DNA of 64,000 nucleotides from NCBI GenBank assembly GCA_963971305.1, contig CAXARO010001022.1:1-64000 (forward strand), written 5' to 3'. Position numbers and translations under genes: made by a program. Source of the DNA: Arcuatula senhousia. Its lineage: Eukaryota; Mollusca; Bivalvia; Mytilida; Mytilidae. Of this stretch, positions 10,805-61,945 are shown one piece after another; within the stretch, counting starts at the first letter, position 1; each line of letters opens with the position of its first letter. Under the pieces are notes generated by a model that was not told where the DNA came from, did no database searches, and saw only the letters and a list, made by a program, of their open reading frames with translations.

Positions 10805-10814
10805 TGCTTTTTTT

Positions 10815-10893: not shown

Positions 10894-11522
10894 TTAGTCA
10901 AGTAACCAATAATCGGTAGGTTGATCTGTCCTTAATATTAATTTACGATGCTTTTTTTTCTTAAGTTCTTCCTTTATTCTTTGCCTTTCTTCCAAAGTTG
11001 GGATGACGTCATTTTCTCTTAAACAATTGTCGTAACTATCCCTGTCTTTTGTGTAAAACATACATAACCATTTTGTTTGTTCTCTCAGATCTTTTAAGAC
11101 AGAGTTGTATCTCTGAGAAATGACCCACACCGATTGTTCCGCGTGTCTTCCTGAAAATGCAAGCTCAGACAACATATCTTTTTTCTTTGTTAGTTCTTTT
11201 GTTGCACTGCAATCATCAATAATATATAACGTTGGATGACCGGCATATTTATTAAAAAAAATCTCAAAAGCTCCTGTAACTTTTCTTCTTCTTTTACTAT
11301 TGGATTAACGATGATTAGATTTTTTGTTTTTGGTTTTTTAACGTCACCAATCCATTCACGATTTTTGTATGCTTTGTTCCATTGAATGGTTGGGCAAAGT
11401 ACAACTATATGTTCAAACACTTTATTATATTCTTTTTCTAATAAATCAAGAACAAATTCAGTCTTTCCACATCCTGTTTGACCGCAGATTATTGCACAAT
11501 GGGGATATTTTGGTAATTCCAT
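10894..11522 (-). pseudogene. packaging ATPase (FtsK/HerA type), frameshifted in a homopolymer
   Basis: The genome-packaging ATPase of the Polinton morphogenesis module. Walker A is GQTGCGKT at residues 14-21. Walker B (hydrophobic run ending DD, about 11203-11230) lies in the shifted frame, and the second part has ELAFSGRHAEQSVWVISQRY with the downstream sensor-like Gln/Arg region and ends YWLLD. The two frames (11190-11522 and 10894-11175 plus upstream codons) overlap; the break falls in a run of eight A on the plus strand at 11254-11261. That could be a real loss, a sequencing or assembly slip, or polymerase slippage. The gene is 11 bp downstream of the capsid gene, the classic ATPase/capsid pairing. 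The start follows CTTTTAAA. Confidence 0.88.
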
Positions 11523-11533
11523 TTTAAAAGGAA

Positions 11534-12799
11534 TTAATAATTAACTTCTTTAAATCTTCCATCTTCAAAATTAATTTGTGCATCTTGTATAACAAACAGA
11601 TAAACATTTATTGATTTGTCTGCTCCTGAAGTTTTGGTTATTTGTATGGTTACGCCTTCAGAAGTGTTTTCGATTCTTCTACCCGAACCGTGTAATGCGT
11701 TATCATCCGTTGAACGTAAATCTAGCCACAATGCGTAATTAGTCGTTAAATATTTTTCCAATGTTGTATATGATAAATTTAGATTTTTTGCAATCAGGTT
11801 TGTTTCTTTATCCCTTTTTGAATTCAAACCAAAGAATTTATTTATTTCATCCCACTGTTGATATGCTTTCATTCCTTGACTATAAAGTTGATTTGGAACC
11901 CCTTCAATTGTCATTTCTACTTTTGTTATGTTAGGATTATAAAAAGTTTCAGTGCTTGTCCTATCAGGATCTTCAAAAAGCATTAGAATTCCTTTCATGC
12001 TTCTGGCCGGAACATTTAAATTAATATTCCACAATGTATCGGATTTGTTTTTGGTTATTTTTCTATGTCTCAGTATTCTATCGTACAAAATAACCATCTT
12101 ACCGTCAACTTGTTGCCTTATCTGTCTTGCCAATTCAGCATCAGTAACCATATCAAATTCCAAACAAATGTTTTTGACTTTATAACTTGCAGATGCATCC
12201 GACGATTTGATAACATCACCATAACTATTAAATGTAAGTTCATATTCAAGTCTATCACCAAGACCCGCTTGATAAAAAGGCATATGAGTTTCCAAAAGTT
12301 CAAAATCAAGTGGGATACAAAATCTTGAACCATATGCGGTGGCGATTGCTTCATCACCTACGTCTGACCCTTTATCATCTGCACCAACCCTATGTTTTAA
12401 CATGTTTGCCTCACCGATACCTTGGTATGCCATATTGTTACGTTCAGATGCAGATTTCCATAAATCAGTATAGCAATAATAGATGTCACTATCATCAATT
12501 GACATAATTTCATTTCCGCTAATACGAATTGTTGTTTTTTTAACTATTGCCCTTCCTATGTTTTGATATATAGTTGCATTGTCGTCTGTGGATTGGATTT
12601 CTATTTCGAATGCTAATCTGGTTGTTCCGGGAACAATAACATCATTGTTGCCTAGATTTGGGAATCTCACTAATAACTGTTGATTTTGATCAATAGTTGA
12701 AGGATTATTGGTTATCACCACACTTTGGCGAATACCTTTTACACCGCGGGGTTCTCTTGTTTTTCTGTAGGGATTTAATTTGTTTCCGTATGCCGACAT
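11534..12799 (-). CDS. MCP: double-jelly-roll major capsid protein
   Basis: About 421 aa from the ATG at 12799 (MSAYGNK). I prefer it over an in-frame start 12 codons upstream because the latter runs into the preceding gene while this one has the CCTTTAAAA leader. Length, position next to the ATPase, and the pattern of beta-rich segments with GTTRLAFEIEIQS near the start and YALWLDLRSTDDNALHGSG near the end match Polinton/adintovirus hexon-type capsid proteins. It would form pseudo-hexameric capsomers. The frame is uninterrupted from end to end. Two antisense frames over 12065-12507 and one on the same strand are shadows. Confidence 0.9.
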   Translation of the reverse strand: MSAYGNKLNPYRKTREPRGVKGIRQSVVITNNPSTIDQNQQLLVRFPNLGNNDVIVPGTTRLAFEIEIQSTDDNATIYQNIGRAIVKKTTIRISGNEIMSIDDSDIYYCYTDLWKSASERNNMAYQGIGEANMLKHRVGADDKGSDVGDEAIATAYGSRFCIPLDFELLETHMPFYQAGLGDRLEYELTFNSYGDVIKSSDASASYKVKNICLEFDMVTDAELARQIRQQVDGKMVILYDRILRHRKITKNKSDTLWNINLNVPARSMKGILMLFEDPDRTSTETFYNPNITKVEMTIEGVPNQLYSQGMKAYQQWDEINKFFGLNSKRDKETNLIAKNLNLSYTTLEKYLTTNYALWLDLRSTDDNALHGSGRRIENTSEGVTIQITKTSGADKSINVYLFVIQDAQINFEDGRFKEVNY

Positions 12800-12818
12800 T
12801 TTTAAAGGAAAAAATTTG

Positions 12819-13334
12819 TTATAAAAATAATTCAATTGTTAATGATATTACAATGTCTACACTTGATGCATTTTCCCATGGGACTGACAAAGCATCCGAT
12901 ATTAATGGTTTAGCGTCAATAACAAAATTTATTGCATCTCCAGCTTCAACTTTTAAAGGGATGTAAAACGTTTCAAAATTACCATAAATATTTGCGTCAT
13001 AATTCAGTTTATATTTTAATGAATCATTAAGATTTATGGTAATGTATATAGAATCCGCGGTTGGTGCAGCATTTCTTGCACTCATTCCTAGAATTTGTCC
13101 GGGATAGGCCATTATATATTCAACTTCACTTCCATTTTCACCAAAACCAATTTTTCTACTTTTGCCAACATCCCCCTTATATGCTGTATTAATACTTATT
13201 ATTTTTCTATCTGGTATATTTTGAACTTTTTCATATAAAATAGTATTATTGAGATTTATTATTTTCATTGAATTCTTAATATCATTCAATTCTGATTCGG
13301 GAAATTTTTTTTTATTAAAACCAAATATACTCAT
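12819..13334 (-). CDS. beta-rich virion protein candidate beside the capsid gene
   Basis: About 171 aa from the ATG at 13334 (MSIFGFNKKK), which overlaps the preceding stop as ATGA. The C-terminal two thirds alternate short beta-type stretches (ISINTAYKGD, SIYITINLND, FETFYIPLKVEAGDAINFVIDA) without cysteines or membrane segments, consistent with a jelly-roll or spike-like structural protein. Sitting between the capsid and the penton-like gene supports a virion role. I do not recognise a family with certainty. Confidence 0.6.
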   Translation of the reverse strand: MSIFGFNKKKFPESELNDIKNSMKIINLNNTILYEKVQNIPDRKIISINTAYKGDVGKSRKIGFGENGSEVEYIMAYPGQILGMSARNAAPTADSIYITINLNDSLKYKLNYDANIYGNFETFYIPLKVEAGDAINFVIDAKPLISDALSVPWENASSVDIVISLTIELFL

Positions 13335-13978
13335 TTTATAAGCTCCAAAATGCAAACCACAGGTAATTTATTATTTATCTTATTATTATTCTCATCTCTA
13401 ATTTCTAATTTAAATTCTGTTATAACATCGTTTACCAAGCATTTATATTCCGGATTTTCAAATCTAACTGTTATAACATCCCCGAACTCTTTATTTTCAA
13501 CAGGAATAACCGTTAATAAAGTACTAGGCTTTCCATCAAAATAATTATGAGAAGTACTTACTTGCTCCAAATGTAAATACAATGATTTGTGAATAGCAAA
13601 ATCTATGGGTTTATTTCCTACGTGCGTTTGATTGGCTTCAAATATTTGTTTATGTCTGAATCCCAACATCTGTTTCAATCCTTTACTTATTTTTAAATCA
13701 GTTGGTGTTGTCAATGATGCAAACCCATTTGTTTCATTTACTTCTATTGTAATATTCGCTTTTTGAAATTCATCTTTAAGTTTTTGAAACCCATAACATC
13801 CATCTGTAATTTTTATGGTTTTTCTTTCTTCAACTTTTCGTATTTGTTCATCTAAAACATTATACCAACCTAAATTATATGTTATGGATTTTAAACCGAT
13901 TTGTTTATTTTCATTTCTATTATCAATGCCTTCACTTAGATTTATTATATTATTAATATTTGATATAGTGTGATACAT
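13331..13978 (-). CDS. minor capsid (penton-like) protein
   Basis: 215 aa. The alternating beta pattern and the blocks DGKPSTLLTVIPV, then FEN-P, then FKLEIRDENNNKI ending with a LEL motif match the single-jelly-roll penton/minor capsid proteins of Polintons and adintoviruses. It would occupy the five-fold vertices. The frame is intact. Its start is only 15 bp from the start of the divergent 13994 gene, and its stop overlaps the next start (ATGA). The family call is by pattern recognition; a structure prediction would settle it. Confidence 0.75.
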   Translation of the reverse strand: MYHTISNINNIINLSEGIDNRNENKQIGLKSITYNLGWYNVLDEQIRKVEERKTIKITDGCYGFQKLKDEFQKANITIEVNETNGFASLTTPTDLKISKGLKQMLGFRHKQIFEANQTHVGNKPIDFAIHKSLYLHLEQVSTSHNYFDGKPSTLLTVIPVENKEFGDVITVRFENPEYKCLVNDVITEFKLEIRDENNNKINNKLPVVCILELIK

Positions 13979-13993
13979 TTTTTAAGATAAAAA
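13979..13993. promoter_or_regulatory. 15-bp divergent start region
   Basis: Only 15 bp (TTTTTTAAGATAAAA) separate two head-to-head ATGs. It is near-symmetric: each gene reads the same T/A tract into AAAATG. Conventional upstream promoters would have to lie within coding sequence. Regulatory role inferred. Confidence 0.45.
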
Positions 13994-15196
13994 ATGACTA
14001 AAATAACAGAAGAATATAAATATAATCCTAATGCGGAGCATGACACTCGTCCAAATAATAAGGTAAAAGAAAGTTTGGATCTGATCAAACAAACAATATT
14101 TGTTAATCAAAAAGATAGCTTTGAAGTCATTTTCCCTGATTTATTTAAAAATTATCAAAATCCACCAATACACACCAACGAACCATGGAATACATGGATT
14201 CATTCCTCATTTGATTGGTGGCAATGTCAGCTAAACTTTGCCGTCTGGTGTGCCACTGCAGGATGTGGGGTTTCTTTTGTTGATCATATTCAAAATACCA
14301 CAAATCTTACCAGATCGGTTTATATGTTTCATTTGTATTATTGTACGGCTAGAATCTTAAAAGAACTTAAATCCCCTTTACCAAGTGACCCGGCATTTTG
14401 TTATTACAAAAACCCATATTCTAAAGCTGCTTATGAACGATTATGTAATGAGTTTAATGTTTCTCCAAGAACAGATTGGAGACAGAAAATGGAAAAAGCA
14501 TGACAAGGATTGGGATACTTTACCCAGTATTATAAACCAGGTGGAGAATATAGATATCATCACAAAAGTGAAGGACCTTTTTTTAATGTTATGGATAAAT
14601 TATATCATTCACAGGATATAAGTATGGCTTGGACAACATTTATACCAAACATATCAAAGGGTTTTACAAAAGCTGGAATAGAACGAATTAATGAAAGTAT
14701 TAGAACTTATGTGTGGGCTTTATTAGGTGCACAATCTCAAACAAAAGTAGAAATATTAAAAGTAGGAACAGGATTTGATGCACAAAAACAATTTTTAGCA
14801 AATGTACAAGATGTTATTAACAGTCCTATCGATTTGCCCACTCAGATATCAAATTATCAAAATGTTTTAAAATATGCAAGAAGTAAAGTTGATTACGCTT
14901 ATGGACTTGGTTTATACATGTCTCCCAGCGATATGGTTTTACAAATTGGTACTATCGTTGGTTATAATAATAAAATTGTAATTGCAACAGAAAACCAAAC
15001 GCTCGGCTTGAACGACGATTTGAATAATAAAAATTTTGATCCTGTTGATTCTAACCCAAAAAAGTCAGAACCAAAAATACCGGAACCAATAACAATAAAA
15101 CAAGTTCAAATACATGACGATCACGAAGATCATAAAAAGGCAATAATATTTGGAAGTATTGTATTGGGTATTACAGCGCTTAATTTATTTTCTTAA
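13994..15196 (+). pseudogene. Polinton protein with C-terminal membrane anchor, one nonsense codon
   Basis: A roughly 400-codon frame interrupted by an in-frame TGA at 14501-14503; the reading frame is the same on both sides (13994-14503 and 14504-15196). The N-terminal part has WNTWIHSSFDWWQCQLNFAV, tryptophan- and cysteine-rich, and the region around the stop carries DWRQKM. The C-terminal part has a proline/glutamate-rich linker followed by a terminal transmembrane helix (AIIFGSIVLGITALNLF). This two-part architecture is familiar to me from invertebrate Polintons but I know of no assigned function; a virion surface or attachment role is a guess. The 3' end overlaps the convergent gene at 15185 by 12 bp. 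Confidence 0.7.
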
Positions 15197-16248
15197 ATAT
15201 TCCCTAGCGGCGGTATATAATAGACCAACAACCAAAACAAGCAAAGCCCATAGGTTGTTTGCAAACCAATTTACTACGTCTTTTGTTGTGGACAATAACC
15301 AAGATACGATTGAACCTATAATACCTGGTAATGCAGCTCCTAATTTTCCTGCAAGAAAAGATAATAGTTTTCCAAGATTTTTTAACTGTTTCTTTATCCA
15401 GTCTTGTACACCGCCTTCCGATGGCGTTGGGGGAGGAGGTGAAGGGGAAGTAGATCCACCAGTAAATGTTTCGACAATAACACCGATAATCATTCCAAAA
15501 GCGGTTAAGATACTAACCAGGGTGATGCCTTGTTCTCTTAATAAAGTCCTTATTCTTTCGCCTAATGTTTTGTCTTCGTTTAATACTTTACGTATTGTCT
15601 CTTTGATTCTATTTACCTGAGTACGTAATTTTTCTTTATTGATATTAATTACTTCTAGTCTTGAACTTCTCTCAATTTCCAAATCTCTAATTCTACTACT
15701 TATTCTATTTATTTGGAATTCATCATTGTCTTCTTTTGCTTGTTCTAATTTGGTATTTTCTTTTGCTAACTCTTTATTTGTTTCGTTTAGTTTTGCTAAT
15801 TCGTTTGCAATCTCTTCTTTTACTGTGGTCATTGCACTGATTACGCCATCCATCTCTCTTTTTGTCATGTCTGTTTGTGTTTCTTCATTTATAAAAGATA
15901 TCCCTTGTTCATCAAATGAAGTTTCTATTTCTTTTACATGTGTTTCTGAATTACTTGCGGTTTCTAATAATTCTTGCACTTCTTGTTGTGTGGATATTTC
16001 TTGTAATGGAATATTTTCTATGGTATTATTAAGTTCACGAATTGGTCCTTTATTTAACATTCTTTGAAACTCTGCTCTACCTTCTCTTATTCTATCAGAT
16101 ATTTTAAAATCATTTACACCTAAAACATCTCTGACAAAATTAATGCCATGTTGTTTTTGAAGAGTGCTAAATTTATAAAATTTTAATAAACCGTTTTGGT
16201 AATATGTCAATGCAATTTCCTTAGCATTTTCATCTTTTACATATAACA
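15185..16248 (-). pseudogene. C-terminal part of a coiled-coil membrane protein split by a transposon
   Basis: About 352 codons remain here; the N-terminal 94 codons lie at 19583-19864 on the far side of the inserted element. This part has a long predicted coiled coil (heptad-like E/K/L/I repeats, roughly 110-220 of the fragment), a hydrophobic segment (ITLVSILTAFGMIIGVIVETF), a proline-rich linker (SPSPPPPTPSEGG) and a C-terminal membrane region with amphipathic and transmembrane helices (LWALLVLVVGLLYTAA). The layout suggests a virion membrane or fusion/penetration-associated protein, but no activity is shown. Frame continuity across the insertion is exact when the element and one 5-bp duplicate are discounted. 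The GTG at 16249 is not a natural start. Confidence 0.75.
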
Positions 16249-17137
16249 CACTGTATGGAAAGAGCGAAAGGGAAAAACGGTTGATTTCTGTGCCCCGGTG
16301 TAGTTTACTCCTGTGTCATTGTTGTATTGTGGGTAAAACAGACGATTGTAAACATCAGGAAGACGAAAATATGTCATTTAGGTAGAAAAATAGATATACT
16401 AGTGTTGTTAAGGTTCATTTGTAGTTTCTTACTTGTCACTCTATTGTTTTCTAACAAGTTTTAAATCAATAGATAAATAATGTAAGAAATATCGCAATAA
16501 AAAAACAAAAAGTTAAAATGATGAAAATCGCATAATTCTTTGGTACATCTGTAAGCAATTAGTAAGTGTAAATATTCTTTATAATATTTTATAACATATT
16601 CTACTGTCGAAGATTAGAAATTATCCTCTCAAATGATTTTACAGCTGTGTTTAACTTATGAGGCGAATGTTTATTGTGTGCCCTGCTGCTGTTAAGTTCT
16701 GTGCACGCTGTAGTTTATTTGAGAGCAGTTTTTAAAGTAGCGAAAGTTTATTTATGTGTTCTGATAAAACTTATCAGAATAGAAAAAGCCTTTAATTTAT
16801 AGAAAAACTCATTTCTAAGTAGCAGTTTGCGTTTTTCATCTTAATTTGATGGAATATCTTATGAAAGGTTAACAAAAAACCTACAATAAGTAACAGATTT
16901 AACTGATTTGTTGTTTTGTAAACACTCAATAAAAAGGGTTGAAGAAATGCTGTCGTTTATTTCCGAGTTCACGAATGTTGATTTCTGTACAGCAAAAATT
17001 GTTGTAGTTTATTTCTGTGCTATTTATTTTTATTATAATAATTTTTTATTGTTTGATGTTATAAACATGAATGTGCTTTAAATACAGGCTAGAGGCACTA
17101 ATGGAAATATATTTTTTTTCAATTTCAGAAATATAAT

Positions 17138-21490: not shown

Positions 21491-21732
21491 GTTTATTCAC
21501 TATTACCCGGTAATACAAATTCTCACAAATTTTCACTTCAAAGTTATCTTAGTTTATTCACTATTACCTGGTAATACAAATTCAAAAAATTTTCACTTCA
21601 GACTCATCTTAATTTATTCACTATTACCTGGTAATACAAATCTTCAAAATATTTCGCTTCAGACTTATCTTAATTTATTCACTATTACCTGGTAATACAA
21701 ATCTTCGCAAAGTTTCACTTCAGAGTTATCTA
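21491..21732. repeat. four 60-61-bp direct repeats, each with a TATTACCNGGTAATA palindrome
   Basis: Units begin at 21491, 21552, 21612 and 21673 (GTTTATTCAC / ATTTATTCAC). Each carries the 15-nt palindrome (21501-21515, 21562-21576, 21622-21636, 21683-21697) followed by TTTCACTTCA and TTATCTTA-type words. The palindrome is the best-conserved part. The array lies between the rightmost gene start (21188) and the right terminal repeat. 21190-21490 holds nothing else obvious. Confidence 0.92.
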
Positions 21733-22479: not shown

Positions 22480-24447
22480 TTAAGGTTTTAAAGTTACTAT
22501 CAAGCTATCAATATTTCTGCCAAAACATACCAAATGCAAAGATTTTACTAAAACATTTAATTCGTATCCTTTTTTCAAAAGGTTTTTAAGCCAGTTTTTA
22601 ATTTCCATAAGGTTGTTTTTGAATTTTTGTGCTTTATAAACTACATTGCTATAAAAGTCAGGATGAGCTATTCCTTTAATAATCAGAAATCTACGTGTAC
22701 AATCAAATTTTTCGATGAGATGTCCATATTTATGTGCAAATTTTGTAAAAGATTTGACTAATTTGTGGTAACGGTAACCTTGTTTTAGCAATTTTTCTGT
22801 AATAAAACGGTTTTTATCATTAAAATCAGACACATCACTGCAAATGCGAGCATACCTGACTAATTGTGAAATGTATACCCCGTAAGCTGGAGCTAATGGT
22901 ACGTCTCCTTCAAGAAACGGAAAATTAACTATTGGGAATGAAAAGTCATCCCGTTTATCATATACTTTAGTGTGTAATCTACCATTGATAATGCTTAAGT
23001 CCAAATCTAGAAATGGACATCTACTGTCGGTTGAGTTTGCTTTATTTAGGGTTAATTCTTTAGGATATATATCATTTATAAAATTTGAGAATGTGGGGTT
23101 GTTTAGAGCAAGTATGTCATCTAAGTACCTATATGTATTGTTAAAAGTTTCGATAAGGTGGTTTTTGTTTGGGTCTTTTTGTAGCTTGGCCATAAACTGT
23201 GATTCGTAACAATATAAAAACAGATCAGCTATGAGTGGAGCACAATTGGTTCCCATTGGAATACCAATGACTTGGCGATATATTTGTTTACCGAACCGGA
23301 TGTAAATATTATCTAAAAGAAAGTTTAATGCAGTAATAACTTCTATGTCTGTCCAATTAACATAACCTTTGTGGGTTTCGTTACTTAAAAACGATTTACT
23401 AAATACTTGTGACACTTTAGAACAGATGTAGTCACTTTTAGATTTGTCAAAGCACCATTTAATTAAATATTCTAATTTCTTTTTGATAAGATTGTGAGGT
23501 AGATTAGTATATAAAGTGGAAAAGTCATAGCTGTCTACGGATTGAAAAGTATTTTCAAATGCCCGAAGTTTGTCTAAAACATCAAGAGAATTTTTAACAC
23601 TCCAAAAATGATTTATTCCACTATTTTCGAAAATTTTATCACAGTATCGGATGATAAATTCTTTCATTGTAGTTAATACAAGAGACAAGACTTTAGAAAT
23701 ATTGGTTAAGGAACATTTACTTGATGCAGAAATAAAACGGGATTTATATGGGTTTTTGAGTAATTTAGGTATCCAGTACATAGTAGGTAATTTATTGTAT
23801 GTAGGGGCTGCTCGAAGTGCTGTGGTTGCTATGACATGATCGTCAATAATACTGGTTTCTGTAGCTTGCACGGGAACGAAAGTACATGAGCCTTTAATTT
23901 CATGCATTAAAACATCCAGATAATATTTACGACATACCACAACAACATTGTTAGCCGCTTTATCCGCAGGAACAAAAACATATCGTGAACCTAATAATTG
24001 TAGTTTTGATTTAATTCTGTTTATATAAGTTTGGGGTAGATATTCTACAAAGGTGTTTTGAAAATGGCTTATTCGTAATTTTACAATGGATATGAATTTA
24101 TTCTTAAACTTGTCTAAAGATTTGGAATCTGCTCCTTCTCGTCTAATCCAGGTCTTACAGTACGAATGAAGGGCAGTATTTACACAATCAAAACAAGAAT
24201 TCCAATTAATTTTCGAAGGAGGTCTGAATTTTGGTCCCTTTTTCAAGAATTTAATAACCTCTGGGTCATTGACAATGTTTAGGTCGCCAGTAACAATATG
24301 GCCACAAGGAACATATCTAAAGTCCGAATTAGCACAGTCGCATGATACAGGAATATTCGAGTCTAGGTCTTCATCTGTAGTGATGGACGTATAGTTAAAA
24401 ATAATACATACATTTTTGTATCTTAAAATATTTTCAGAGCTAAACAA
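22480..24447 (-). CDS. Penelope-like reverse transcriptase, uninterrupted 655-codon frame (family C)
   Basis: An RT of a Penelope-like retroelement. Visible blocks: an N-terminal Cys/His region (VSCDCANSDFRYVPCGHIVTGDL, 34-56) with KKGPKFRPP; PADKAANNVVVVC (160-172), the PLE 'DKG' neighbourhood; YWIPKLLKNPYK (224-235), the PKLHK-type block; motif A SYDFSTLYTNLPH (306-318) with catalytic D308; motif B GIPMGTNCAPLIADLF (395-410); motif C RYLDDI with D443-D444; then YDKRDDFSFPIVNFPF (496-511) and APAYGVYISQLVRYAR (519-534). All three catalytic aspartates are present and there is no stop or frameshift. No GIY-YIG endonuclease follows the RT, and none is seen just upstream, so the copy is probably 5'-truncated or belongs to a lineage with an N-terminal endonuclease. 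The true start is uncertain. Confidence 0.85.
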   Translation of the reverse strand: MFSSENILRYKNVCIIFNYTSITTDEDLDSNIPVSCDCANSDFRYVPCGHIVTGDLNIVNDPEVIKFLKKGPKFRPPSKINWNSCFDCVNTALHSYCKTWIRREGADSKSLDKFKNKFISIVKLRISHFQNTFVEYLPQTYINRIKSKLQLLGSRYVFVPADKAANNVVVVCRKYYLDVLMHEIKGSCTFVPVQATETSIIDDHVIATTALRAAPTYNKLPTMYWIPKLLKNPYKSRFISASSKCSLTNISKVLSLVLTTMKEFIIRYCDKIFENSGINHFWSVKNSLDVLDKLRAFENTFQSVDSYDFSTLYTNLPHNLIKKKLEYLIKWCFDKSKSDYICSKVSQVFSKSFLSNETHKGYVNWTDIEVITALNFLLDNIYIRFGKQIYRQVIGIPMGTNCAPLIADLFLYCYESQFMAKLQKDPNKNHLIETFNNTYRYLDDILALNNPTFSNFINDIYPKELTLNKANSTDSRCPFLDLDLSIINGRLHTKVYDKRDDFSFPIVNFPFLEGDVPLAPAYGVYISQLVRYARICSDVSDFNDKNRFITEKLLKQGYRYHKLVKSFTKFAHKYGHLIEKFDCTRRFLIIKGIAHPDFYSNVVYKAQKFKNNLMEIKNWLKNLLKKGYELNVLVKSLHLVCFGRNIDSLIVTLKP

Positions 24448-24869
24448 GTAACAATTAACATGTTAAAGTATTCGTTTTATAAATTTACATTCTCTACTTC
24501 TTTTAGGATTCAGCTTTTTAATTTTCAAATCTTCTCCTTGTTTAACATTCTAAATTATATAGCTTGAAACCCTTTACTTTGTTTTTTAATGATCTAAATT
24601 AGTGCACAGTGCTTGGTAATATGTTGTTTTAGTTGTTAAATGGCTTGGGTGTAAATTAGATAACTGTTTGTTTCAGGAAAATATTGATTCACTTATAAAA
24701 TAAGTTTCATGACATTTCAATTTCTTTGTTTAATCAAATAAAATCATTTTTACATAATAGACAAATATTTTATGTTTATTACACAAAAGGTCTTTTGCAT
24801 ATTTTGTGTTTGGAAAGGAAGAAATATCTTGTTTCTATAATCATGATAATTCTCTATGATCTAACATGT

Positions 24870-28129: not shown

Positions 28130-28454
28130 ACTGTGATGCTGTATATGTACGTTCAGTTTTCATTAACAGCACTTAAAAAAAAGGAAAATAAAATATCGAA
28201 AAGTTCAAATCTTATTGAATAGTTTCACCTTTTCACTGACTTATTTTCCGGGTTTTTATAAGATAAAAATAAATAATTCCATTTTGGTATAGTTAATTTT
28301 ATTGTTCTTTGTTCTTAAAATTCATATAGGGTTTGACACTTTCAATCTTTTGGTAGAGCGTCTCTTATGAGTCTTGATTGGACGAATCGCGTGTCAGGCG
28401 TATAAAAAATCATTGTCTGGAACTTTGTTGTACTTTTGATTTTTTTATTTCATG
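28130..28454 (+). repeat. left half of a duplicated ~500-bp segment (copy 1)
   Basis: Matches 30095-30454 nearly throughout (TTAACAGCACTT, GGAAAATAAAATATC, then the hammerhead relic and GGAACTTTGTTGTACT). It resumes at 29306-29470, matching 30463-30625. Copy 1 is interrupted by a PLE at about 28455-29305. Confidence 0.65.
28356..28400 (+). ncRNA. decayed hammerhead ribozyme
   Basis: GAGCGTCT, CTTATGA (core should be CTGATGA), GTCTTGATTGGAC stem-loop, GAAT (should be GAAA), CGCGTGTC, AGGCG. Two core positions are changed, so self-cleavage is unlikely. Confidence 0.7.
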
Positions 28455-30094: not shown

Positions 30095-30625
30095 CTATGT
30101 TGTTTTTGCATTGCATAAGTTTTTATTAACAGCACTTGAAAATAAACGGAAAATAAAATATCTAAACGTCCAAAGTAAATCTTAATCATGATTTATACCT
30201 TTTCAATGACTTATTTATCGGCTTTTAATAAGATAGAAACTTAAAAAAAATGATCAAAAAATTATTAGAAATAGTCACTCAGGTATCCATTTCGGTATTT
30301 TTTATTTTATTGTTCTTTTTTTTTACTATTTACATAGTGTTTGGTATTTTCAATCCTTTGATAGAGCGTCTCTAATGAGACTTGATTGGACGAACCGCGT
30401 GTCAGGCGTAGTAAAATTTATTGAATGGAACTTTGTTGTACTCTTGATTTTTTTATTTCCTTAAGTTTGAGGCAATTTAATTAGCTGTCTAAGCTCAACA
30501 TTTACCAAGTTCTGTTGTATTCCGTATTTGGCTGTTTGACCGTTGTTCTAGAAAAAAAGAAGATATTATCAGTAACAGTAAAGAAGTACATCGCTATAAA
30601 TCGAAATCTCGTCCATCTCACACTC
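30095..30625 (+). repeat. duplicated ~500-bp segment (copy 2), PLE-free
   Basis: Direct copy of 28130-28454 plus 29306-29470 without the intervening PLE. It contains a hammerhead relic (30364-30408). The intervening 29470-30095 has no recognisable gene. Confidence 0.65.
30364..30408 (+). ncRNA. decayed hammerhead ribozyme
   Basis: GAGCGTCT, CTAATGA, a GACTTGATTGGAC stem-loop, GAAC, CGCGTGTC, AGGCG. Same relic as 28356-28400 with different core mutations. Confidence 0.65.
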
Positions 30626-34489: not shown

Positions 34490-34950
34490 ATTCGGATACT
34501 AAATGTTGGGGGTCAATGATATTTCACAACTAGATAGGTCATGGGTAGGGCTAAACCACCCACTAGAAATTGGGTCACTGTGACCTATATTTTATGCATG
34601 AACGGCTTTGGCTATGTTTTTAGTAAAGGTCCATAACTTGGATATTAGATGTTGAGGTTAATGATATTTCACCACTAGATGTGTCTAGGGTAAGGTGACA
34701 CCACCCACTAGAAATTAGGTGACGGCGACCTATATTTTATGCATAAATGACTTTGGTTAAGGTCCATTACTCGGATACTCGATGTTGAGGGTCAATGATA
34801 TTTCACTACTAGATGAGTCTAGGTAACAGGGCTCCACCCACCAGAAATTGGGTCACTGCGACCTATATTTTACGCATGAACACTTTTGAATGATTTCTTG
34901 GTAAAGGTTAAAATTCCAGGTTATAGACATTGGATGTCAGTGATATTTCA
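34490..34950. repeat. ~130-150-bp tandem repeat, three to four units
   Basis: Units contain GGTCAATGATATTTCAC, ACTAGATG, CACCCACTAGAAATTGGGT and GACCTATATTTTATGCAT in that order, near 34512, 34655 and 34793, with a decayed fourth near 34938. No coding function. 34950-35310 shows nothing. Confidence 0.8.
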
Positions 34951-37999: not shown

Positions 38000-40930
38000 C
38001 ATTGGAAAGTCTTTGAATAAAGGTAATAACAAAACTACCGAACTTGAATGATCAATCTCATAGTTCAGAGAAAATGACAAGAACGAATCAGTCATACCGG
38101 AGAATTGGTGGATCGCAATGGTCCTGATTTGGTACAGGCATTTCAAACGAAATGGTGGGTTAAACCAGGTTTTATGGCGCCAAACATCCCTCTTCCATTG
38201 CGATCTTAGGATCCGGTAATGACCATAGAACACAACATAGTTGTGAGACACAATAGGGATATTGAGGTGATCATCTCAGTACAGCAAACCAGTCAAACAC
38301 TAATTAAAACAATTAACTATCATATCTTTTAAGTCAATTTTGAACTTATCCACTAGTGGCTGATAACGAAGAAAGAATTTTTTTAGGGATCGTATGAGAC
38401 GTATTTTCTTATAACCCTGCTCCAAAAGTCACTCACGAAGAAATCGGTGTCTGATCAAAAAATCTGTGAAATGTGTGCAAGCACTGGCATATCGAATAAC
38501 TTGTGAAATATAAACACCGTATGCAGGGGAAGTAGGTATATTGCTCTGTAGATTAGGAAAATTAATAATTTGAAAATTAAAATCGTCTCGTTTATCGTAA
38601 ATTTTTGTACTGAGATGACCACCTGGGTCAAATTCGAGGTGCAAATCCAAGAAAGACGTGAAGCAATTTGTGTCGGTGGTCTCTTTAATCTCCAATTCTG
38701 GAGGATATATTAAACGAATCCATCTACCAAATGAAGTGTTATTGACAGAAAGGACATCATCAATATATCTGAATGTAAGATTAAATGACCTTGCTTCTTT
38801 CATCTTCTTGTTCTTTACGAGTCCCTGAAGAAATTCAGTCTCGTAAGAGTATAAAAACAAATCGGCGAGGAGAAGAGCACAGTTTGTGCCCATTGGAATG
38901 CCGATTTGTTGTTGAAAAATCTCTCCTCCGAAGGTGACAAATATGTTGTCAATGAGGAAATCAAGCATACTGCAAACTTGTTCCAGTGTGTAACAAATTT
39001 TATCTTTGAAAGATGTTTTGGAAAAGAATGTAGAATTATAACCCAAAACAACAAAATTCCTAGATTTGAAAAGGCTTTTTTCGAGAAGTTTTTTCAGGCG
39101 ACAAATATGTTGTCAATGAGGAAATCAAGCATACTGAAAACTTGTTCCAGTGTGTAACAAATTTTATCTTTGAGAGATGTTTTGGAAAAGAATGTAGAAT
39201 TATAACCCAAAACAACAAAATTCATAGAGTTTGAAAAGGCTTTTTTCGAGAAGTTTTTTCAGGCGACATTTTAGTTTTTCGTGTGGCAAGGTACTGTATA
39301 AAGTTGAAAAATCGAACGTTTTCAAAGAGTGAACCTCAGAAAATGATCTAGATTTAAAATGATCTAACAAATCTTTTGAGTTCTTCAAAATCCACATATG
39401 GTTAATTCCACTACGATTATAAATAGTGTCGCAGTATGCTTGTTGACCTTCTTTGACAGCAGACAAGATTTTAGTTAAATGAACGGACAGCTCTGTAGTT
39501 GAACATGATGAAAATCCAGCTATACGGATTTTTGTGAAGTTTAGGTATCCAGTACAAATATGGTAACTCTTTATGTTCCTCTTTCATTGGAATATTGAAA
39601 GAGGACATAAAAGAGCTATGGTTGGCTATGATTTCATCTTTGTTAAATGTAGTCCGTTTATATGTAGCACTAGCGGCAGTATTATCATCAATGCCTAGTT
39701 CTTTTATTAGACAATTGTATTAATGTGCTTTACATACAAAAACTATATTATTGGAAGCCTTGTCTGCTGGCATGACAACATACCTGTCATGTAAGGAAGA
39801 GAGACAATTGAGAGCTTCACGATCTCTAAATACAGAAGAAGGCCGGGGGTTCACACATTTGCGAAGTTTGTCTATACGGCTTCGTACAAGAGATCGGATA
39901 GTCCTTACCCAGTCCGACAGTGATTCAAGCTCTGGTTCTTGGTCCTTTTCCCTCTTTATCCAGGCTCTAGCATAGTCCTCCACAGCGTCCATGATGATCT
40001 TAAAGTTGTGATTCCAATTTATACGTTGCGGTTCCCTGAATTTAGGTCCATGGGAAACCACATTACGTAATAAATCATTTTCAATTATCTTAAGATCACC
40101 CGTGATGACATGACCAGATGGACCATAGACAAAGGGAGAAACATAGCAATCACATGTCAGAGGGGACTTTAGATATTCTTCAATGTTTAGGTCCTGCAAT
40201 GCCTATTTGTGGTTGAAAATTTTACTACTTATGGTTTTAGTGTAGCGGTAGGAAACAATTGGTGTTGACTGATTTTTGAAATATGGAGGAATTTGAGATG
40301 TAACTTCCTTACGATTTAAAATATTGCTGATGTTTATAGCATCTATTCCTTTGTTCTTAAATGGAATATGGAGAAATTTCCTATCCTCAGTAGTAAGAGG
40401 CTCACTTCTTACAGGCTTAAAAAGCCGAAAAAAGGCAACGTCGCATATAATGCTAGTAAGTCTGTAAGAAGGAGAAAATGGATCAGTACCTGCTTTCTCT
40501 AACCCAAGATCACGTAGGTCTTTTAGTTTCGTGACTCGTAGTGAATAGAGAATGGTACGAACATGATGGACTCCCAATGGTTGTTGTAGACTAGCTACCA
40601 GATCATCAAACGTGTCTGAAAGAGATCTGTTGTCAGTTTGACTGGCACCAGATGTCGGTTTGTATCGTTTGTGACCATGACTACGTTTGTGTCTACCATT
40701 AGGGTCAAACAGTTTCATAACATTCACCTCACTACATTGTGGGCTAGAAAGATTTCCTACTCCTTTGATGTTATCATTACATCCATAAGGCATTGCAGTA
40801 CCTAAAGTTTTTATCCAGTTAAGCTCTCGTTTTTTACGGTGAGGTGTACTAAGATTAGGACTGTTGGTGTCGTGGTAAATCTTTTCGATAAACCGGACTT
40901 TCATGTTCAAACATTGGTACGAAAAGTACT
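38000..40930 (-). pseudogene. PLE copy with N-terminal endonuclease remnant (family B)
   Basis: Read on the minus strand from 40910: a segment with KKRELNWIKTLGTAMPYGCND, which looks like the end of a GIY-YIG nuclease (E..WI..L.T..P.G.N); a linker; TCDCYVSPFVYGPSGHVITGDL with HGPKFREP (about 40000-40150); the PADKASNN block (about 39740); damaged motif A FDFSTLYSTLPHEK (about 39280); motif B IPMGTNCALLLADLF (about 38880); motif C RYIDDVLSVNN (about 38760); and the C-terminal RT blocks to about 38430. Several frameshifts and a ~164-bp internal duplication kill it. The 3' part runs to about 38000 and ends with AATAAAGGTAATAACAAAAC. Endonuclease before RT is the permuted order described for Naiad/Chlamys-type PLEs. 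Confidence 0.75.
38936..39265. repeat. ~164-bp tandem duplication inside the PLE RT
   Basis: The stretch from ACAAATATGTTGTCAATGAGG through GAGAAGTTTTTTCAGGCGAC occurs twice in direct order (38936-39099 and 39100-39265) with few differences. The junction is within RT coding sequence between motifs A and B. Confidence 0.85.
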
Positions 40931-50850: not shown

Positions 50851-50935
50851 GGGTAACATCAAAGTTCCAGACAATAGATTTTGCTACGCCTGACGCGTGT
50901 GTCGTATATTCAAGACTCAGAGGCACTTTACCCAA
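50851..50935 (-). ncRNA. decayed hammerhead unit, inverted relative to the array
   Basis: The complement reads GTGCCTCTGA, GTCTTGAATATAC, GACA, CACGCGTC, AGGCGTAGC, then TTGTCTGGAACTTTG. It is the repeat-unit core with a damaged CTGATGA and GAAA. It lies 66 bp before the intact array. 49740-50850 shows no gene. Confidence 0.65.
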
Positions 50936-51200
50936 ACTATTGAAAAAGCTAAAGTTAGCATTGTTCATGTTTTGCCATAAAGCCTGGAAACTGTTCAGAT
51001 ACTTTTGAGTTGGAGAATACATCAAAGCTTTAAATTATCCGTCTAAATTTCAAAATTGTCTAAACCCTAAGGTTCTTCCTACCCCAGACATAGGTTGAAT
51101 ATCTTAGTAATAATTTGGTTCCCCAGTTTGGTAGTTTTGGTTATACTGTTCTATGCTCTTCATATTCATACAGTGTTTGGCATTTTCAATATTTTTGGTA

Positions 51201-51249
51201 GAGCGCCTCTGATGAGTCTTGAATAGACGAAACGCGCGTCAGGCGTAGC
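51201..51249 (+). ncRNA. type I hammerhead ribozyme, unit 1
   Basis: The core CTGATGA (51209-51215), stem II GTCT/AGAC with a TGAAT loop, GAAA (51229-51232), stem III ACGC/GCGT with no loop, and cleavage triplet GTC ending at 51240 are all intact. Stem I pairs GCGCCT with AGGCGT. Predicted cut between 51240 and 51241. Confidence 0.88.
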
Positions 51250-51558
51250 AAAATTTATTGTCTGGAACTTTGTTGTCATTTGTATTTCGAACACACATGA
51301 AGGTTAGCACTGCTTGTGGAGTTTAAATTCCCCGAGGTTAGCCCGCTCCGGCACCAACACTTTTGAGTTGGAGAATACATCAAAGCTTTAAATTATCCGT
51401 CTAAATTTCAAAATTGTCTAAACCCTAAGGTTCTTCCTACCCCAGACATAGGTTGAATATCTTAGTAATAATTTGGTTCCCCAGTTTGGTAGTTTTGGTT
51501 ATACTGTTCTATGCTCTTCATATTCATACAGTGTTTGGCATTTTCAATATTTTTGGTA

Positions 51559-51607
51559 GAGCGCCTCTGATGAGTCTTGAATAGACGAAACGCGCGTCAG
51601 GCGTAGC
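51559..51607 (+). ncRNA. type I hammerhead ribozyme, unit 2
   Basis: Identical core to unit 1, CTGATGA at 51567-51573; predicted cut after 51598. Confidence 0.88.
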
Positions 51608-51916
51608 AAAATTTATTGTCTGGAACTTTGTTGTCATTTGTATTTCGAACACACGTGAAGGTTAGCACTGCTGGTGGAGTTTAAATTCCCCGAGGTTAGC
51701 CCACTCCGGCACCAACACTTTTGAGTTGGAGAATACATCAAAGCTTTAAATTATCCGTCTAAATTTCAAAATTGTCTAAACCCTAAGGTTCATCCTACCC
51801 CGGACATAGGTTGAATATCTTAGTAATAATTTGGTTCCCCAGTTTGGTAGTTTTGGTTATACTGTTCTATGCTCTTCATATTCATACAGTGTTTGGCATT
51901 TTCAATATTTTTGGTA

Positions 51917-51965
51917 GAGCGCCTCTGATGAGTCTTGAATAGACGAAACGCGCGTCAGGCGTAGC
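51917..51965 (+). ncRNA. type I hammerhead ribozyme, unit 3
   Basis: Identical core to units 1 and 2, CTGATGA at 51925-51931; predicted cut after 51956. Confidence 0.88.
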
Positions 51966-52084
51966 AAAATTTATTGTCTGGAACTTTGTTGTCATTTGTA
52001 TATAGAGAAAAGCTGTTGTTTTCTTAAACCTTCAGTTTGTTTAGCTCTACAAAAGTCAGCATTCGGTCGAAGATGTCAGACAAT

Positions 52085-52885
52085 CTCTTATAGGGGTTTT
52101 GGTCCTTTAAATAAAGGTAATAACAAAACTACCGAACTTGAATGATCAATCTCATAGTCCAGAGAAAAGGACAAAAACGAATCAGTCATACCGGAGAACT
52201 GGTGGATCGCAATGGTCCTGACTTGGTACAGGCATTTCAAACGAAATGGTGGGTTAAACCAGGTTTTATGGCGCCAAACCTTCCTCTTCCATTGCGATCT
52301 TAGGATCCGGTAATGACCATAGAACACAACATTGTTGTGAGACACAATAGGGATATTGAGGTGGTCATCTCAGTACAGCAGACCAGTCAAACACTAATTA
52401 AAACAATTAACTATCATATCTTTTAACTCAATTTTGAACTTTTCTACTAGTGGCTGATAACGAAGAAAGATTTTTTTTAGTGATCGTATGAGACGTATTT
52501 TCTTATAGCCCTGCTTCAAAAGTCGGTCACTAAGAAACCGGTGTCTGATCAAAAAATCTGTGAAATGTGTGCAAGCTCTGGCATATCGAATAAGTTGAGA
52601 AATATAAACACCGTATGCAGGAGAAGTAGGTATATTGCTCTGTAGATTAGGAAAATTAATAATTTGAAAATTAAAATCGTCTCGTTTATCATAAATTTTT
52701 GTACTGAGATGACCACCTGGGTCAAATTCGAGGTGCAAATCCAAGAAAGACGTGAAGCAATTAGATTCGGTGGTCTCTTTAATCTCCAATTCCGGAGGAT
52801 ATATTGAAGGAATCCAACTACCAAATGAAGTGTTATTGACAGAAAGGACATCATCAATATATCTGAATGTAAGATTAAATGACCA
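52085..52885 (-). pseudogene. 5'-truncated PLE copy (family B)
   Basis: 3' region (52110-52390) and RT C-terminus (52394-52885, from just after RYIDDVLSIN to the stop, including YDKRDDFNFQIINFPN and SPAYGVYISQLIRYARA). Very similar to 38000-38790. One frameshift lies near 52790-52800. The break at about 52885 marks the truncation. Confidence 0.75.
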
Positions 52886-53512
52886 AGGACAGCAATAATA
52901 TATTTTTTTTTAGTTCTTGCCCTATAGAATGAAAACAATTGCGGATAGAGAAAAGCTGTCTCTTTCTAAGGTCTTCAGCTCAATGACCTCTACATTGGGT
53001 CGAAAATGTCAAATGAGGAGTCAAAGTTCACAGAAAAGACCTATATAGCTTAAGGGCAAGGTAAGTGGTTCAGGGTTCTGGGAGCCTTTTGTTTTTCAAT
53101 GTCGATCATATAACGGTATATGCTTGATTTATTATGACCTGTCAAATTTATAAACATAGTCCCAAAACACAGTTTTGTAACAAAATGAACAGCTGTACCA
53201 TTGGATGATTATAGTGTTGAAGACTAAAGGTCTACTTTTTACTAGCTTTAGTCGGGTCAAACTGAACTGCGGTCGTCTGTCCTGGCCAGGTCTACCTTTT
53301 GAAGAAGACTAGAGCAGACCTGAAAACAGTGCAACCTATACCTGACCTGCTATTGAAACGTTAATTCTAAGATGAAGTGGAATTTTTAGATTTTGTATTG
53401 TAATCTAATCGAGAATTGTGAAATGAAAGTACATTTATTAATATAACAAAAGGTCGCATCAGAAGGAGGGGTTTGGATATTGTTAGCGCGCCAGAAAAAA
53501 AAAACGGTATAA

Positions 53513-59019: not shown

Positions 59020-60699
59020 CTAGAAAACATAAGAGACACACATTGTTTGTTTTTGTTTGAACATTGTAGTAGTTATTATTCAAAATTGCAAAACTGAATT
59101 CAAAAATCAAAATTACAAAAAGGTTCCCTGCAATCAGCTTTCCCTAGTAAGCTGAAAATAGTCTGAAATGACTAAAGAATATATGTGTTACTGAACAAAT
59201 ATTTTTCGATTCGTTCAGATAAATTAAGGTGTTCAGTTTCTATTCAGTTCAATTATCATTACAGTCGATTCAGGTCCGTTCAGACAAATTCAGTTGGTCA
59301 AGACTATCGTACGTCATCCAGTGTTAAGGTGTTAAGATCTGTCAAGACAATTTCAGTAAATATCGCATTGAAACCTTTGTGTTAAGGTGCATTAAGGTAA
59401 TAAGAGTAACATCCCTTTGTACAATTAAGACAACCTGTAGAGACGATAAATTCTAAATCATCGGTCATGTTGATCGTCGCTGATATACAGAGTTTCCAAA
59501 AAATCTACGTTCTAACATCATCTATCGTTTCCTTTTGTTTGGTTTTATCATATAAATCGGGAATACGACCGCTGTTCTGCAATGATTTTCATTTTTTTCA
59601 TTTTGATCAAAATTACTTAATCAGATGGCCTCGTTGAAGGCTGCTGGCGATTGTTCATTGTGGTTTTCTAAATTGCCGTTTAATTGTGGGCTGTGTCGCT
59701 TACACTTATTCCACATCTCATTATTTTCTTTTGTACGATTGAATATTATAATATTTACAAATGATATACTTGACTGTCAATAATGTAAGTACCTGTACAC
59801 AAAAACGCAGTCAATCACATGGTCAAATTAGCAAAATTAAAAAAATACAGTTTTTAAATAAAATTTAGCAAAACATCAGCGTCACTGTTCACAATTTCTG
59901 CACTGCCCACTATATATAGCTATCAGCTTTTATCTATGTCATGAAAGTACAAAATTTGTAAAAAGGTACGCCTTTCAATCTCCGAAAATAGAGTCATGTG
60001 AAGTGGTAATAGGCGAGCGGCGGAAAGGGGTCTTGAAAAAAATTTAAATTACCCAAAAACCTCATGGGATATTTTTAACTTTATTGATAGTTTAATATTT
60101 CAGCTTTAATAATATCGATGTTTGCCATTTGGAATCTGGTCAGAACATGAAAAAATTAAAGGTCAAAGGTCACTACCCAAAATCTAAAAGTTTGAGTCTG
60201 CAAACATTAAGGCAACTAAAATGTTTCAAAATGTGGTTAAAAGTTAGAAAATAAAGACTTAATATTACTTACATATATAAGTGAATATAAATCATTCACT
60301 TTTGGTCTCTTTGAAGAAATTTGTTACGTTATTTTTTCTATTTTTAGAAAAGGGTCAAATTATTTTGATTTTTGTGTATAAAAGTTTGAATTGCGAAAAA
60401 AAGAATTCACATTTTCACTCACTTTTTTCCTCTATTTGTAAAACATTATCTTATCTTTCGTTTGTAACAAAAATGAATTGTTCAAATGTGTTCATTGACT
60501 CAAAAACACCACATTTGTGGATTATACCAGAATATTAGGTTTTAATAAAAAGTGTACTGAGTTACCATTAACATGTTTAAAACGGAATAGGAATCAAAAA
60601 CCAACAACAATATCTTAAATCCAACTAGTTAAGTAGAGAACAATAGCTTTGCACAGAAAAAAGAAAGAAAATCATCGAAAAACTAACTAAAAAACAGGA

Positions 60700-61656
60700 A
60701 AACTATCCTTTCTTGACATTGAATGTTCCATTCAAGGTGGTAAAATAGCTACATCTGTCTTTTACAAACCTACAGATGCCCACTGCTACCTCAACTACAC
60801 TTCCTGTCACCCCCAGGCTTGTAAAAATGCCATTCCGAAGTCGCAATTTTTGCGACTTCGTCGAATTTGCAGTGATGACTCTGATTTCCACCAACAGAGC
60901 AACAAAATGAAGTCATTCTTTGTCAAGAGAGGATATCCAGCCAGGGTTTTAAATAAGGCCATATCATCGGTCTCTAAGGTAAACAGAACGTCGGCACTGG
61001 AGCCTAAAACACAAAATTCCAGCGATCGTGTTCCTTTGGTACTCACGTACCATCCGCACAATACGGCCGTACAGAACATTTTGATCCGGAATTTTCGCTC
61101 CATTGTTTTAGAGGACCAACACATGGCAGAGGTCTTCAATTCGCCGCCTTTAATGGCTTTTAGGAAGGGCAAAAGTCTTAGACAACACCTTGTCACCAGC
61201 TCTTTTAAAAGCGCGGCTCGCCGCCCTCTGGCCGATTACCGTGGCACTAGAAAATGTAAGCGGCCCGTGTGTTCCACATGTCAGTTTGCCTGGGAGACAA
61301 ATGAGGTGAATGGTCCGTCCAACACTTTCACTCTTAGAAATGGGTTTACTTGCGTATCGGAGAATTTGATATACGCAATCCAATGCAAAAAATGCCTGAT
61401 GGTTTCTGTCGGTGAGACCTGCCGTAGACTTGGAGACCGCTTTGCGGAACACATCAGAAGTGTTCGTAATAGTGGAGATTGTCCGGTAGGTCGCCACTTC
61501 AGACAGCCAGGCCACAATTTGTCCGATATGCAAGTGACTGTGTTGATGGTGGCTAATATGGGTGAAAAGCAACGACAGTCTCTAGAACAGAGAATCATCA
61601 AGTTCCTTGGTTCTAGTCACCCTATGGGCATGAATATCAAAAACAATCTGTTGTAA
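60700..61656 (+). pseudogene. 5'-truncated canonical PLE: RT end plus C-terminal GIY-YIG endonuclease
   Basis: The open frame starts inside the RT thumb (SVFYKPTDAHCYLNY, SCHPQACKNAIP, FLRLRRICSDDSDF) and continues through the linker (FFVKRGYP, LVLTYHPHN) into a zinc-binding CKRPVCSTCQF block and a GIY-YIG-type nuclease region (NLIYAIQCKKCLMVSVGETCRRLGDRF..H), ending FLGSSHPMGMNIKNN before the TAA at 61654-61656. The second signature reads VSVG rather than YVG. Frames from about 60850 to the stop are intact. It differs from the other PLEs in the window in having the endonuclease after the RT. 5' truncation at about 60700 is typical of retroelement insertion. Confidence 0.85.
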
Positions 61657-61904: not shown

Positions 61905-61945
61905 ATTTCCCTGAAGAAGGTCTTTTGACCGAAAGTACTCGGGCC
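61905..61945 (+). ncRNA. hammerhead-like hairpin in the PLE 3' region
   Basis: CTGAAGA (61911-61917, fits CUGANGA), hairpin GGTC-TTTT-GACC, GAAA (61931-61934), then self-complementary AGTACT followed by C. The order parallels the intact hammerheads at 51201-51965. An unpaired A after the core and a weak stem I make activity doubtful. Confidence 0.4.

What the first reader, a model, noticed from the sequence alone, without database searches (positions are those of the whole stretch)
51001..52001. Retrozyme-like tandem array with three complete-core hammerhead ribozymes
Seen: three 358-bp units, each with an unmutated CTGATGA / stem II / GAAA / GTC core. Known: metazoan retrozymes are short non-coding retroelements with tandem type I hammerheads that give circular RNAs. 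Inference: this array could yield 358-nt linear or circular RNAs. Its recent homogeneity contrasts with the decayed copies elsewhere in the window.
Basis: partly seen in the sequence, partly recalled or inferred. Interest (0 to 1): 0.85.

Follow-up and report, generated by a model that had tools for sequence, protein, structure and literature searches.

The report
Self-cutting circular-RNA retroelement array
This is a young insertion of a known kind of tiny animal retroelement whose RNA carries a self-cutting hammerhead ribozyme; related copies in the same genome suggest that it spreads by copying a small RNA ring round and round from one fixed starting point, perhaps with a Penelope-type enzyme.

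Summary
Window 51001-52001 is a tandem of a 358-bp non-coding unit (two full copies plus 285 bp, 99% alike), and each copy carries a type I hammerhead above Rfam's threshold. It is a metazoan non-LTR retrozyme, a kind already shown to give circular RNAs in a mussel (repeats of ~350-390 bp, PMC7229834).

What I add concerns insertion. Of 32 arrays compared from this genome, 29 show their 3' end, and 26 of these end at one place, 45-48 nt downstream of the hammerhead cut; the 28 readable 5' ends are spread evenly round the unit. Five arrays consist of identical units, four of them with private variants, and unit-level variants are shared between arrays no more than chance predicts. A released linear monomer would end at the cut, so the likeliest template is a circle copied repeatedly from an internal start. 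Internal start, 5' truncation and tandem copies are the published signature of Penelope-like elements (PLEs), which the literature suspected as helpers of animal retrozymes. The helper was not identified: the PLEs examined share no 3' sequence with the retrozyme, the genome-wide search for a better one did not complete, and no RNA data were available. The sample favours young copies.

The parts
51001..51358 (+). unit 1 (358 bp); its 5' end is the 5' end of the insertion
51359..51716 (+). unit 2 (358 bp); register e1-e358 used in this report
51717..52001 (+). unit 3, 285 bp; ends at the family's usual 3' end, 45 nt past its hammerhead cut
51203..51246 (+). type I hammerhead 1, cut 51240/51241
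   Evidence: RF00163 36.5 bits
51561..51604 (+). type I hammerhead 2, cut 51598/51599
   Evidence: RF00163 36.5 bits
51919..51962 (+). type I hammerhead 3, cut 51956/51957
   Evidence: RF00163 36.5 bits
51241..51598 (+). predicted 358-nt RNA released by two cuts and expected to circularise (inferred)
   Evidence: distance between cuts; no RNA data
51977..51984 (+). TCTGGAAC, 21-28 nt past the cut (also 51261-51268 and 51619-51626); the same word lies 14-21 nt past the cut in an anole PLE; meaning unproven
51992..52001 (+). 3' end of the insertion; inferred start of reverse transcription
   Evidence: 26 of 29 readable 3' ends at e285-288
50856..50953 (-). inverted decayed relative, 47 bp upstream of the array
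   Evidence: 86%
28279..28442 (+). decayed single-copy relative
   Evidence: 81%
30287..30439 (+). decayed single-copy relative; with the previous one 74% alike up to 28451 and 30459, both at TTTATTTC

Best explanation
The array is a recent insertion of a metazoan non-LTR retrozyme. Known for the kind from the literature: tandem copies are transcribed, each hammerhead cuts its RNA, and monomers are closed into circles by a host ligase. Inferred here from DNA: a reverse transcriptase, most likely of Penelope type, starts on the circle at a fixed internal site 45-48 nt past the cut, primed at a DNA nick or break, and runs round the circle until it stops at random. That gives a head-to-tail array with a constant 3' end, a random 5' end and usually no clear target duplication. 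The window array is 2.8 turns of this. Shown: the array, the motifs, the end pattern, the homogeneity. Not shown: transcription, cleavage, circles, the enzyme. The confidence given is for the circle template with an internal start; for the PLE as the enzyme I would say 0.55.
For: 3' ends: 26 of 29 at e285-288. 5' ends: 28, uniform over the unit (KS p 0.996; two set by hand from 1 to 352). No end at the cut. Homogeneity: L032 ten units, L044 minus five, L057 four, L058 three, L034 two, all without a difference within the array; the last four with private fixed variants. Sharing of segregating variants between 22 smaller arrays: 9 seen, 9.2 (sd 2.4) by chance. Circular RNAs known for the Mytilus family (PMC7229834). 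PLE link: internal start of reverse transcription, 5' truncation and partial tandems in PLEs (PMC11167929; PMC3846280); an inverted snap-back at one 5' junction (L042) recalls the inverted structures of PLEs; young PLE families with intact frames exist in this genome; one of them (PLE2) also has a fixed 3' end in 5 of 7 fetched relatives, differing 5' ends, and no clear TSD in 3 of 3 looked at.
Against: No helper identified. PLE1 and PLE-B carry a hammerhead-like motif but end roughly 105-150 nt past it (by eye) and share nothing beyond 10-15-letter chance words with the retrozyme (E 1.3 or worse). PLE2 has no hammerhead found and no matching tail. 3 of 29 arrays do not end there: L037 (e302, ambiguous), L038 (e214), L044 plus (e108). 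Some arrays are as variable within as between (L038, L047, L048), so later reshuffling happens. The sample comes from a search that favours copies like the window unit. The sharing test has little power if sister arrays were not sampled. PMC7229834 says TSDs, when present, exceed 4 bp; I found hardly any. The hairpin at the start site and the 358-nt fold are no better than shuffles. The hammerhead is not more conserved than the rest of the unit in young arrays.
Confidence: 0.72

Rival explanations
1. Same circle template and internal start, but the enzyme is a LINE-type reverse transcriptase that recognises a site in the unit.
For: Fixed 3' end and 5' truncation are also LINE habits (established knowledge); no PLE with a shared 3' end was found.
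Against: LINEs usually start at the RNA's 3' end and leave TSDs of 5-20 bp (established knowledge); in 17 arrays tested no duplication flush at both junctions exceeded 5 bp, L043 in tandem host DNA aside.
Confidence: 0.15
2. The template is an uncut linear multimer RNA, processed or ended at e288 of its last unit, not a circle.
For: It gives tandem arrays with one 3' end too. In vitro, the anole PLE used uncut RNA and did not need the hammerhead (PMC11167929).
Against: Young arrays with 10, 5, 4 and 3 identical units; unit variants shared between arrays only at chance level (9 against 9.2), though this test is weak; no known process ends the RNA at e288; circles are the main RNA form in mussel (PMC7229834).
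Confidence: 0.2
3. Ordinary satellite spread by unequal exchange or by DNA circles, with the hammerhead a passenger.
For: Some long arrays are heterogeneous (L035, L036, L038, L049: 1.3-2.4% within).
Against: DNA mechanisms do not predict one 3' end in 26 of 29 dispersed arrays with uniform 5' ends.
Confidence: 0.04

Closest known systems
Metazoan non-LTR retrozymes, Mytilus galloprovincialis family (PMC7229834; parts 1-4 of 6 read)
   Same: Type I hammerheads in tandem non-coding repeats of ~350-390 bp, below 50% G+C, many copies; stem III of two pairs with a tetraloop as described for invertebrates.
   Different: The organism here is not named; the fixed 3' end, random 5' ends and mostly absent TSDs are not described in the parts read. 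I could not compare with their clone sequences.
Penelope-like elements (PAc, PMC11167929, parts 1-3 of 4 read; A. vaga Penelope, PMC3846280, passages)
   Same: Type I hammerhead, tandem or partial-tandem copies, 5' truncation, start of reverse transcription inside the unit some tens of nt past the cut, AC-rich letters at the start, TSD sometimes absent.
   Different: The retrozyme has no gene; its hammerhead has a stem III; no shared sequence beyond one 8-letter word with PAc, and none beyond chance with the PLEs fetched from this genome.
Plant LTR retrozymes (as described in PMC7229834 and PMC7761336)
   Same: Short non-coding retroelements with hammerheads and circular RNAs.
   Different: Plants: type III hammerheads, LTRs, primer binding site, 4-bp TSDs. 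Here type I and a 358-bp unit; LTR-type signals were not sought separately.
Newt and axolotl satellite retrozymes (as described in PMC7229834)
   Same: Tandem repeats of ~330-350 bp with type I hammerheads and a palindromic tetraloop on stem III.
   Different: Different sequence family; the ends of those arrays were not looked at here.

Membership tests
Metazoan non-LTR retrozyme | type I hammerhead | tested here: met
   3 of 3 units above gathering score
Metazoan non-LTR retrozyme | tandem non-coding repeat of about 150-450 bp, below 50% G+C | tested here: met
   358 bp, 40% G+C, longest open stretch 51 codons
Metazoan non-LTR retrozyme | multicopy and dispersed | tested here: met
   239 matches, a lower bound, on many contigs
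Metazoan non-LTR retrozyme | TSD, when present, above 4 bp | tested here: inconclusive
   17 arrays tested; flush words of 5 bp at most, L043 aside; absence is allowed by the definition
Metazoan non-LTR retrozyme | self-cleavage and circular RNA | not testable with these tools
   no RNA data, no bench
Metazoan non-LTR retrozyme | circRNA highly self-paired | tested here: not met
   linear fold z 0.41 against shuffles; circular fold -71.0 kcal/mol. Reported for most, not all, members, so not used to exclude
Penelope-type insertion (works like) | start of reverse transcription internal to the unit, downstream of the hammerhead | tested here: met
   26 of 29 readable 3' ends at e285-288; read from DNA, so inferred
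Penelope-type insertion (works like) | two start sites 30-40 nt apart (tail) | tested here: not met
   only one clear end class; L037 at e302 is ambiguous. Reported as optional in PLEs
Penelope-type insertion (works like) | AT-rich target with an ATT-type preference | tested here: inconclusive
   TCAT in the last 9 nt of 7 of 28 left flanks against 2 of 28 in a neighbouring window, seen post hoc
Penelope-like element (is a) | encodes reverse transcriptase | tested here: not met
   no open stretch over 51 codons in the unit

The most novel reading that the evidence does not exclude
Animal retrozymes are inserted by Penelope-type enzymes that start inside a ribozyme-made RNA circle at a fixed site and copy it round and round at a DNA nick (target-primed rolling-circle reverse transcription). 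The genome keeps the record: constant internal 3' end, random 5' end, identical units. This would name the machinery that reviews say could not be deduced from the repeats.
Probability: 0.5. Interest if true: 0.68.

Novelty: new member of a known kind. Interest (0 to 1): 0.48.

Why it matters
How animal retrozymes get back into DNA is open: a 2020 review says the repeats show no conserved motif that would reveal the helper element (PMC7761336, passages), and a 2024 review still names LINEs or PLEs (PMC11722881, passages). A fixed internal 3' end can be read from any good assembly, so the question becomes testable in coral, newt or axolotl, and a defined start site about 45 nt past the cut can be tried with a purified enzyme. 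It would also give the hammerhead a clear job: making the one-unit circle that explains why new arrays are homogeneous.

Tried and rejected
TSD hunt: 17 arrays, exact words and BLAST of flanks, no consistent duplication; the arrays were not put through it. Helper hunt: PLE2, PLE1 and PLE-B have no matching 3' end; the RT fragment at 52394-52909 was not searched. Hairpin at the start site: no better than shuffles. Unit fold: ordinary. Selection on the hammerhead within young arrays: none seen (rates 0.0296 and 0.0300; core intact in 174 of 190 units). Pol III boxes: imperfect box A-like words, no credible box B. Pfam on 10 window ORFs and PDB on one said little about the PLEs. Naming the organism: two protein searches named no close species in the 120 best rows of each, and the COX1 search did not complete. 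Contigs C1 to C15 are large (C15 at least 33.9 Mb by the places listed) and the assembly is 1.04 Gb; 'mussel' is only a guess from likeness to the Mytilus description. PMC8557442 and PMC4209133 are not held.

Partial relics (L033:3990, L050:954 and those of the window) were not counted as arrays. The length figures use the 24 arrays with both ends readable and the usual 3' end. The sharing test left out L035, L036, L038, L049, L033 minus and columns e280-296.

Full report
What is there. Window 51001-52001 is a tandem of a 358-bp unit, 2.8 copies, 99% alike; the units differ by 2-3 letters. Each unit has a type I hammerhead above Rfam's gathering score (36.5 bits against 34, E 1.6e-5). Read by hand on the Rfam alignment, stem I is GCGCCU/AGGCGU, stem II is GUCU/AGAC with a short loop (Rfam marks one pair as non-standard next to a gap), and stem III is the palindrome ACGCGCGU, which as a hairpin leaves two pairs and a GCGC loop. 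The cut follows GUC at 51240, 51598 and 51956. Two pairs capped by a tetraloop is how PMC7229834 describes invertebrate hammerheads; a palindrome would also allow pairing between two copies (recalled knowledge of dimeric hammerheads). The unit has 40% G+C and no open stretch beyond 51 codons. Folding programs do not give the hammerhead as the minimum-energy fold, and the 358-nt RNA is no more structured than shuffles (z 0.41).

Surroundings. The array lies among mobile elements. Three relics of related families are in the window: 28279-28442, 30287-30439 and, inverted and 47 bp upstream of the array, 50856-50953. The first two are 74% alike over about 300-340 bp, and the likeness stops at TTTATTTC in both (28451 and 30459), near in form to the GTATTTC end of the young family. 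From 52105 the right flank is 96% like window 38011-38790, in a region with PLE-like reverse-transcriptase frames. The window lies on contig C1003 of an unnamed 1.04-Gb assembly, G000.

Copies in the genome. A 360-bp query gives 239 matches, a lower bound, many at 358-bp steps, on many contigs. A search with RF00163 scored 74 of 145145 first-look candidates: 64 match, 62 above the cut-off, and 0 of 14 control genomes have a match. I fetched 30 regions with arrays and mapped ends on the unit (register e1 = 51359; the cut is e240/241). With the window this makes 32 arrays, L035 and L036 counted as one.

Ends. In 29 of 32 arrays the 3' end lies inside the fetched sequence. Of these, 26 end at e285-288, that is at GTCATTTGTAT(TTC), followed by unrelated DNA; in six of the 26 BLAST ran on to e290-292 through mismatched flank letters. 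The exceptions are L037 (e302, ambiguous), L038 (e214) and L044 plus (e108). The 28 readable 5' ends are spread evenly over the unit (KS p 0.996; two were set by hand from e1 to e352). None of these 29 and 28 ends is at the cut. The 24 arrays with both ends and the usual 3' end hold 1.4 to 33 units, median 3.2, and the fractional part is uniform (p 0.96).

Homogeneity. Mean divergence is 0.98% within arrays (30 with two or more units) and 2.0% between. L032 has ten units without one difference. L044 minus has five identical units with five fixed differences from the family consensus, three private. L057 (4 units), L058 (3) and L034 (2) are also identical within, each with one private fixed variant. 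Against this, long arrays (L035, L036, L038, L049) vary by 1.3-2.4% within, and L038, L047 and L048 vary within as much as between. Variants segregating in one array recur as segregating in another no more than chance predicts: 9 alleles against 9.2, sd 2.4, from 138 events in 22 smaller arrays. So arrays seem to start from one unit, and differences gathered later are not handed on; the test is weak if sister arrays were not sampled.

Target sites. Of 17 arrays tested, only L031 has an exact word flush at both junctions (5 bp), besides L043, which sits in tandem host DNA. L042 has a 7-bp shared word set off from the junction by ACTCATCAG, an inverted copy of hammerhead letters, which looks like a snap-back. 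Two insertions have a related unoccupied site in the window: L059 at 40346/40353 (flanks 98% and 94% alike; no duplication) and L042 at 44071/44073 (81% and 79%). TCAT lies in the last 9 nt of 7 of 28 left flanks against 2 of 28 in the neighbouring 9 nt; I noticed this after looking, so it is a lead only.

Mechanism. A hammerhead-released linear monomer would have its 3' end at the cut, could not by itself give tandem copies, and would put the genomic 3' end at e240. The data ask for a template that continues past the cut, with a start at e285-288. A circle does this with one unit and explains identical units; a linear multimer could do it too but should hand on unit differences. An internal start downstream of a hammerhead, with 5' truncation and partial tandems, is what Frangieh et al. 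describe for a PLE, PAc (PMC11167929): cut 26 nt after the start codon, that is after ORF nt 29; main start at nt 111-118, which is 82-89 nt past the cut; and a second start, with a tail of 30-40 nt between. That puts the nearer PAc start at very roughly 42-59 nt past the cut (my inference; nt 71-82 is AC-rich), beside 45-48 here. The word TCTGGAAC lies 14-21 nt past the cut in PAc and 21-28 nt past it here, and in both AC-rich letters are at or just past the start. One 8-letter word in such a window is suggestive only; I noticed it after looking. In PAc the hammerhead was not needed for insertion in vitro, which speaks against circles being required by the enzyme.

Helper. PLE2 (window 22480-24462, minus) belongs to a young family: 69 matches from 67 scored candidates, most 94-98% identical in protein, many with 907-aa open frames, four pairs in tandem 4135-4137 bp apart. 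Five of seven fetched relatives share one 3' end near CGTATATT with differing 5' parts; L061 and L062 stop earlier; 3 of 3 copies looked at have no clear TSD. No hammerhead was found in its eight loci. PLE1 and PLE-B (124 matches) carry a minimal hammerhead-like motif, and two PLE1 copies end about 46 nt apart, like the published tail (by eye); but their ends lie roughly 105-150 nt past that motif, and they share nothing beyond chance words with the retrozyme. The search for a PLE with this hammerhead and TGGAAC layout did not complete in 19 tries (first, last).

Compared with what is known. The kind is established: PMC7229834 (parts 1-4 of 6 read) reports ~5000 type I hammerheads in Mytilus galloprovincialis, usually in ~350-390-bp repeats, self-cleavage of a clone, and circular RNA most notable in gonads and mantle. 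That paper proposes that a primed circle is reverse-transcribed into tandem copies and names PLEs as a strong candidate; PMC7761336 (passages) says no motif reveals the helper. I found no description of a fixed 3' end for animal retrozymes in those texts, in passages of PMC11722881 and PMC8490949, or in the listings of searches. Most subscription papers and all supplements are outside this check, so it does not prove novelty.

Verdict. The element is a new member of a known kind, or an already known one if the animal is the published mussel. What is new is the insertion record, which makes an open question testable.

Noticed in passing
4275-16315: Frames like those of a Polinton/Maverick-type element: integrase core (PF00665, 4585-5403 minus), Endonuclease VII domain (PF02945) in 5670-7415 plus; a packaging-ATPase-like and a capsid-like frame by eye only.
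   Followed up: no
22480-24462: RT of a young PLE family, many copies with 907-aa open frames, tandem pairs 4135-4137 bp apart, shared 3' end. The start of the next copy in L067 reads like a GIY-YIG endonuclease by eye, so perhaps a Naiad/Chlamys-type PLE (recalled).
   Followed up: partly
60691-61656 and 61911-61940: End of a PLE frame (relatives carry PF26215 and some PF01541) followed by a minimal hammerhead-like motif CTGAAGA..GAAA; relatives form a tandem of 3091-bp units with 957-aa frames at C7:35932942-35940068.
   Followed up: partly
918-957: A 40-nt stretch 78% like the retrozyme hammerhead, below Rfam E 1.
   Followed up: no
L036:6058 and L035:1903: One retrozyme array of about 33 units split by an insertion with inverted ends (95% over 398 bp) and a 3-bp repeat (CTA), about 8.8 kb long; not read in full.
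   Followed up: partly
L047:1680-2078: A retrozyme array inserted near the 3' end of a diverged PLE2-like copy in the same orientation (69% over 352 bp): chance, target preference or a chimera, not decided.
   Followed up: no
52002-52060 and L068:4086-4150: The right flanks of the window array and of one PLE2 copy are the same repeat (GATAGAGAAAAGCTGTTG...), met within a few nt.
   Followed up: no
L044:4993-5311: Two retrozyme arrays face each other tail to tail across 319 bp; the left one lacks the usual 3' end.
   Followed up: no
21492-21731, 34619-34877, 38932-39268: Other tandem repeats with periods 61, 133 and 164 bp.
   Followed up: no
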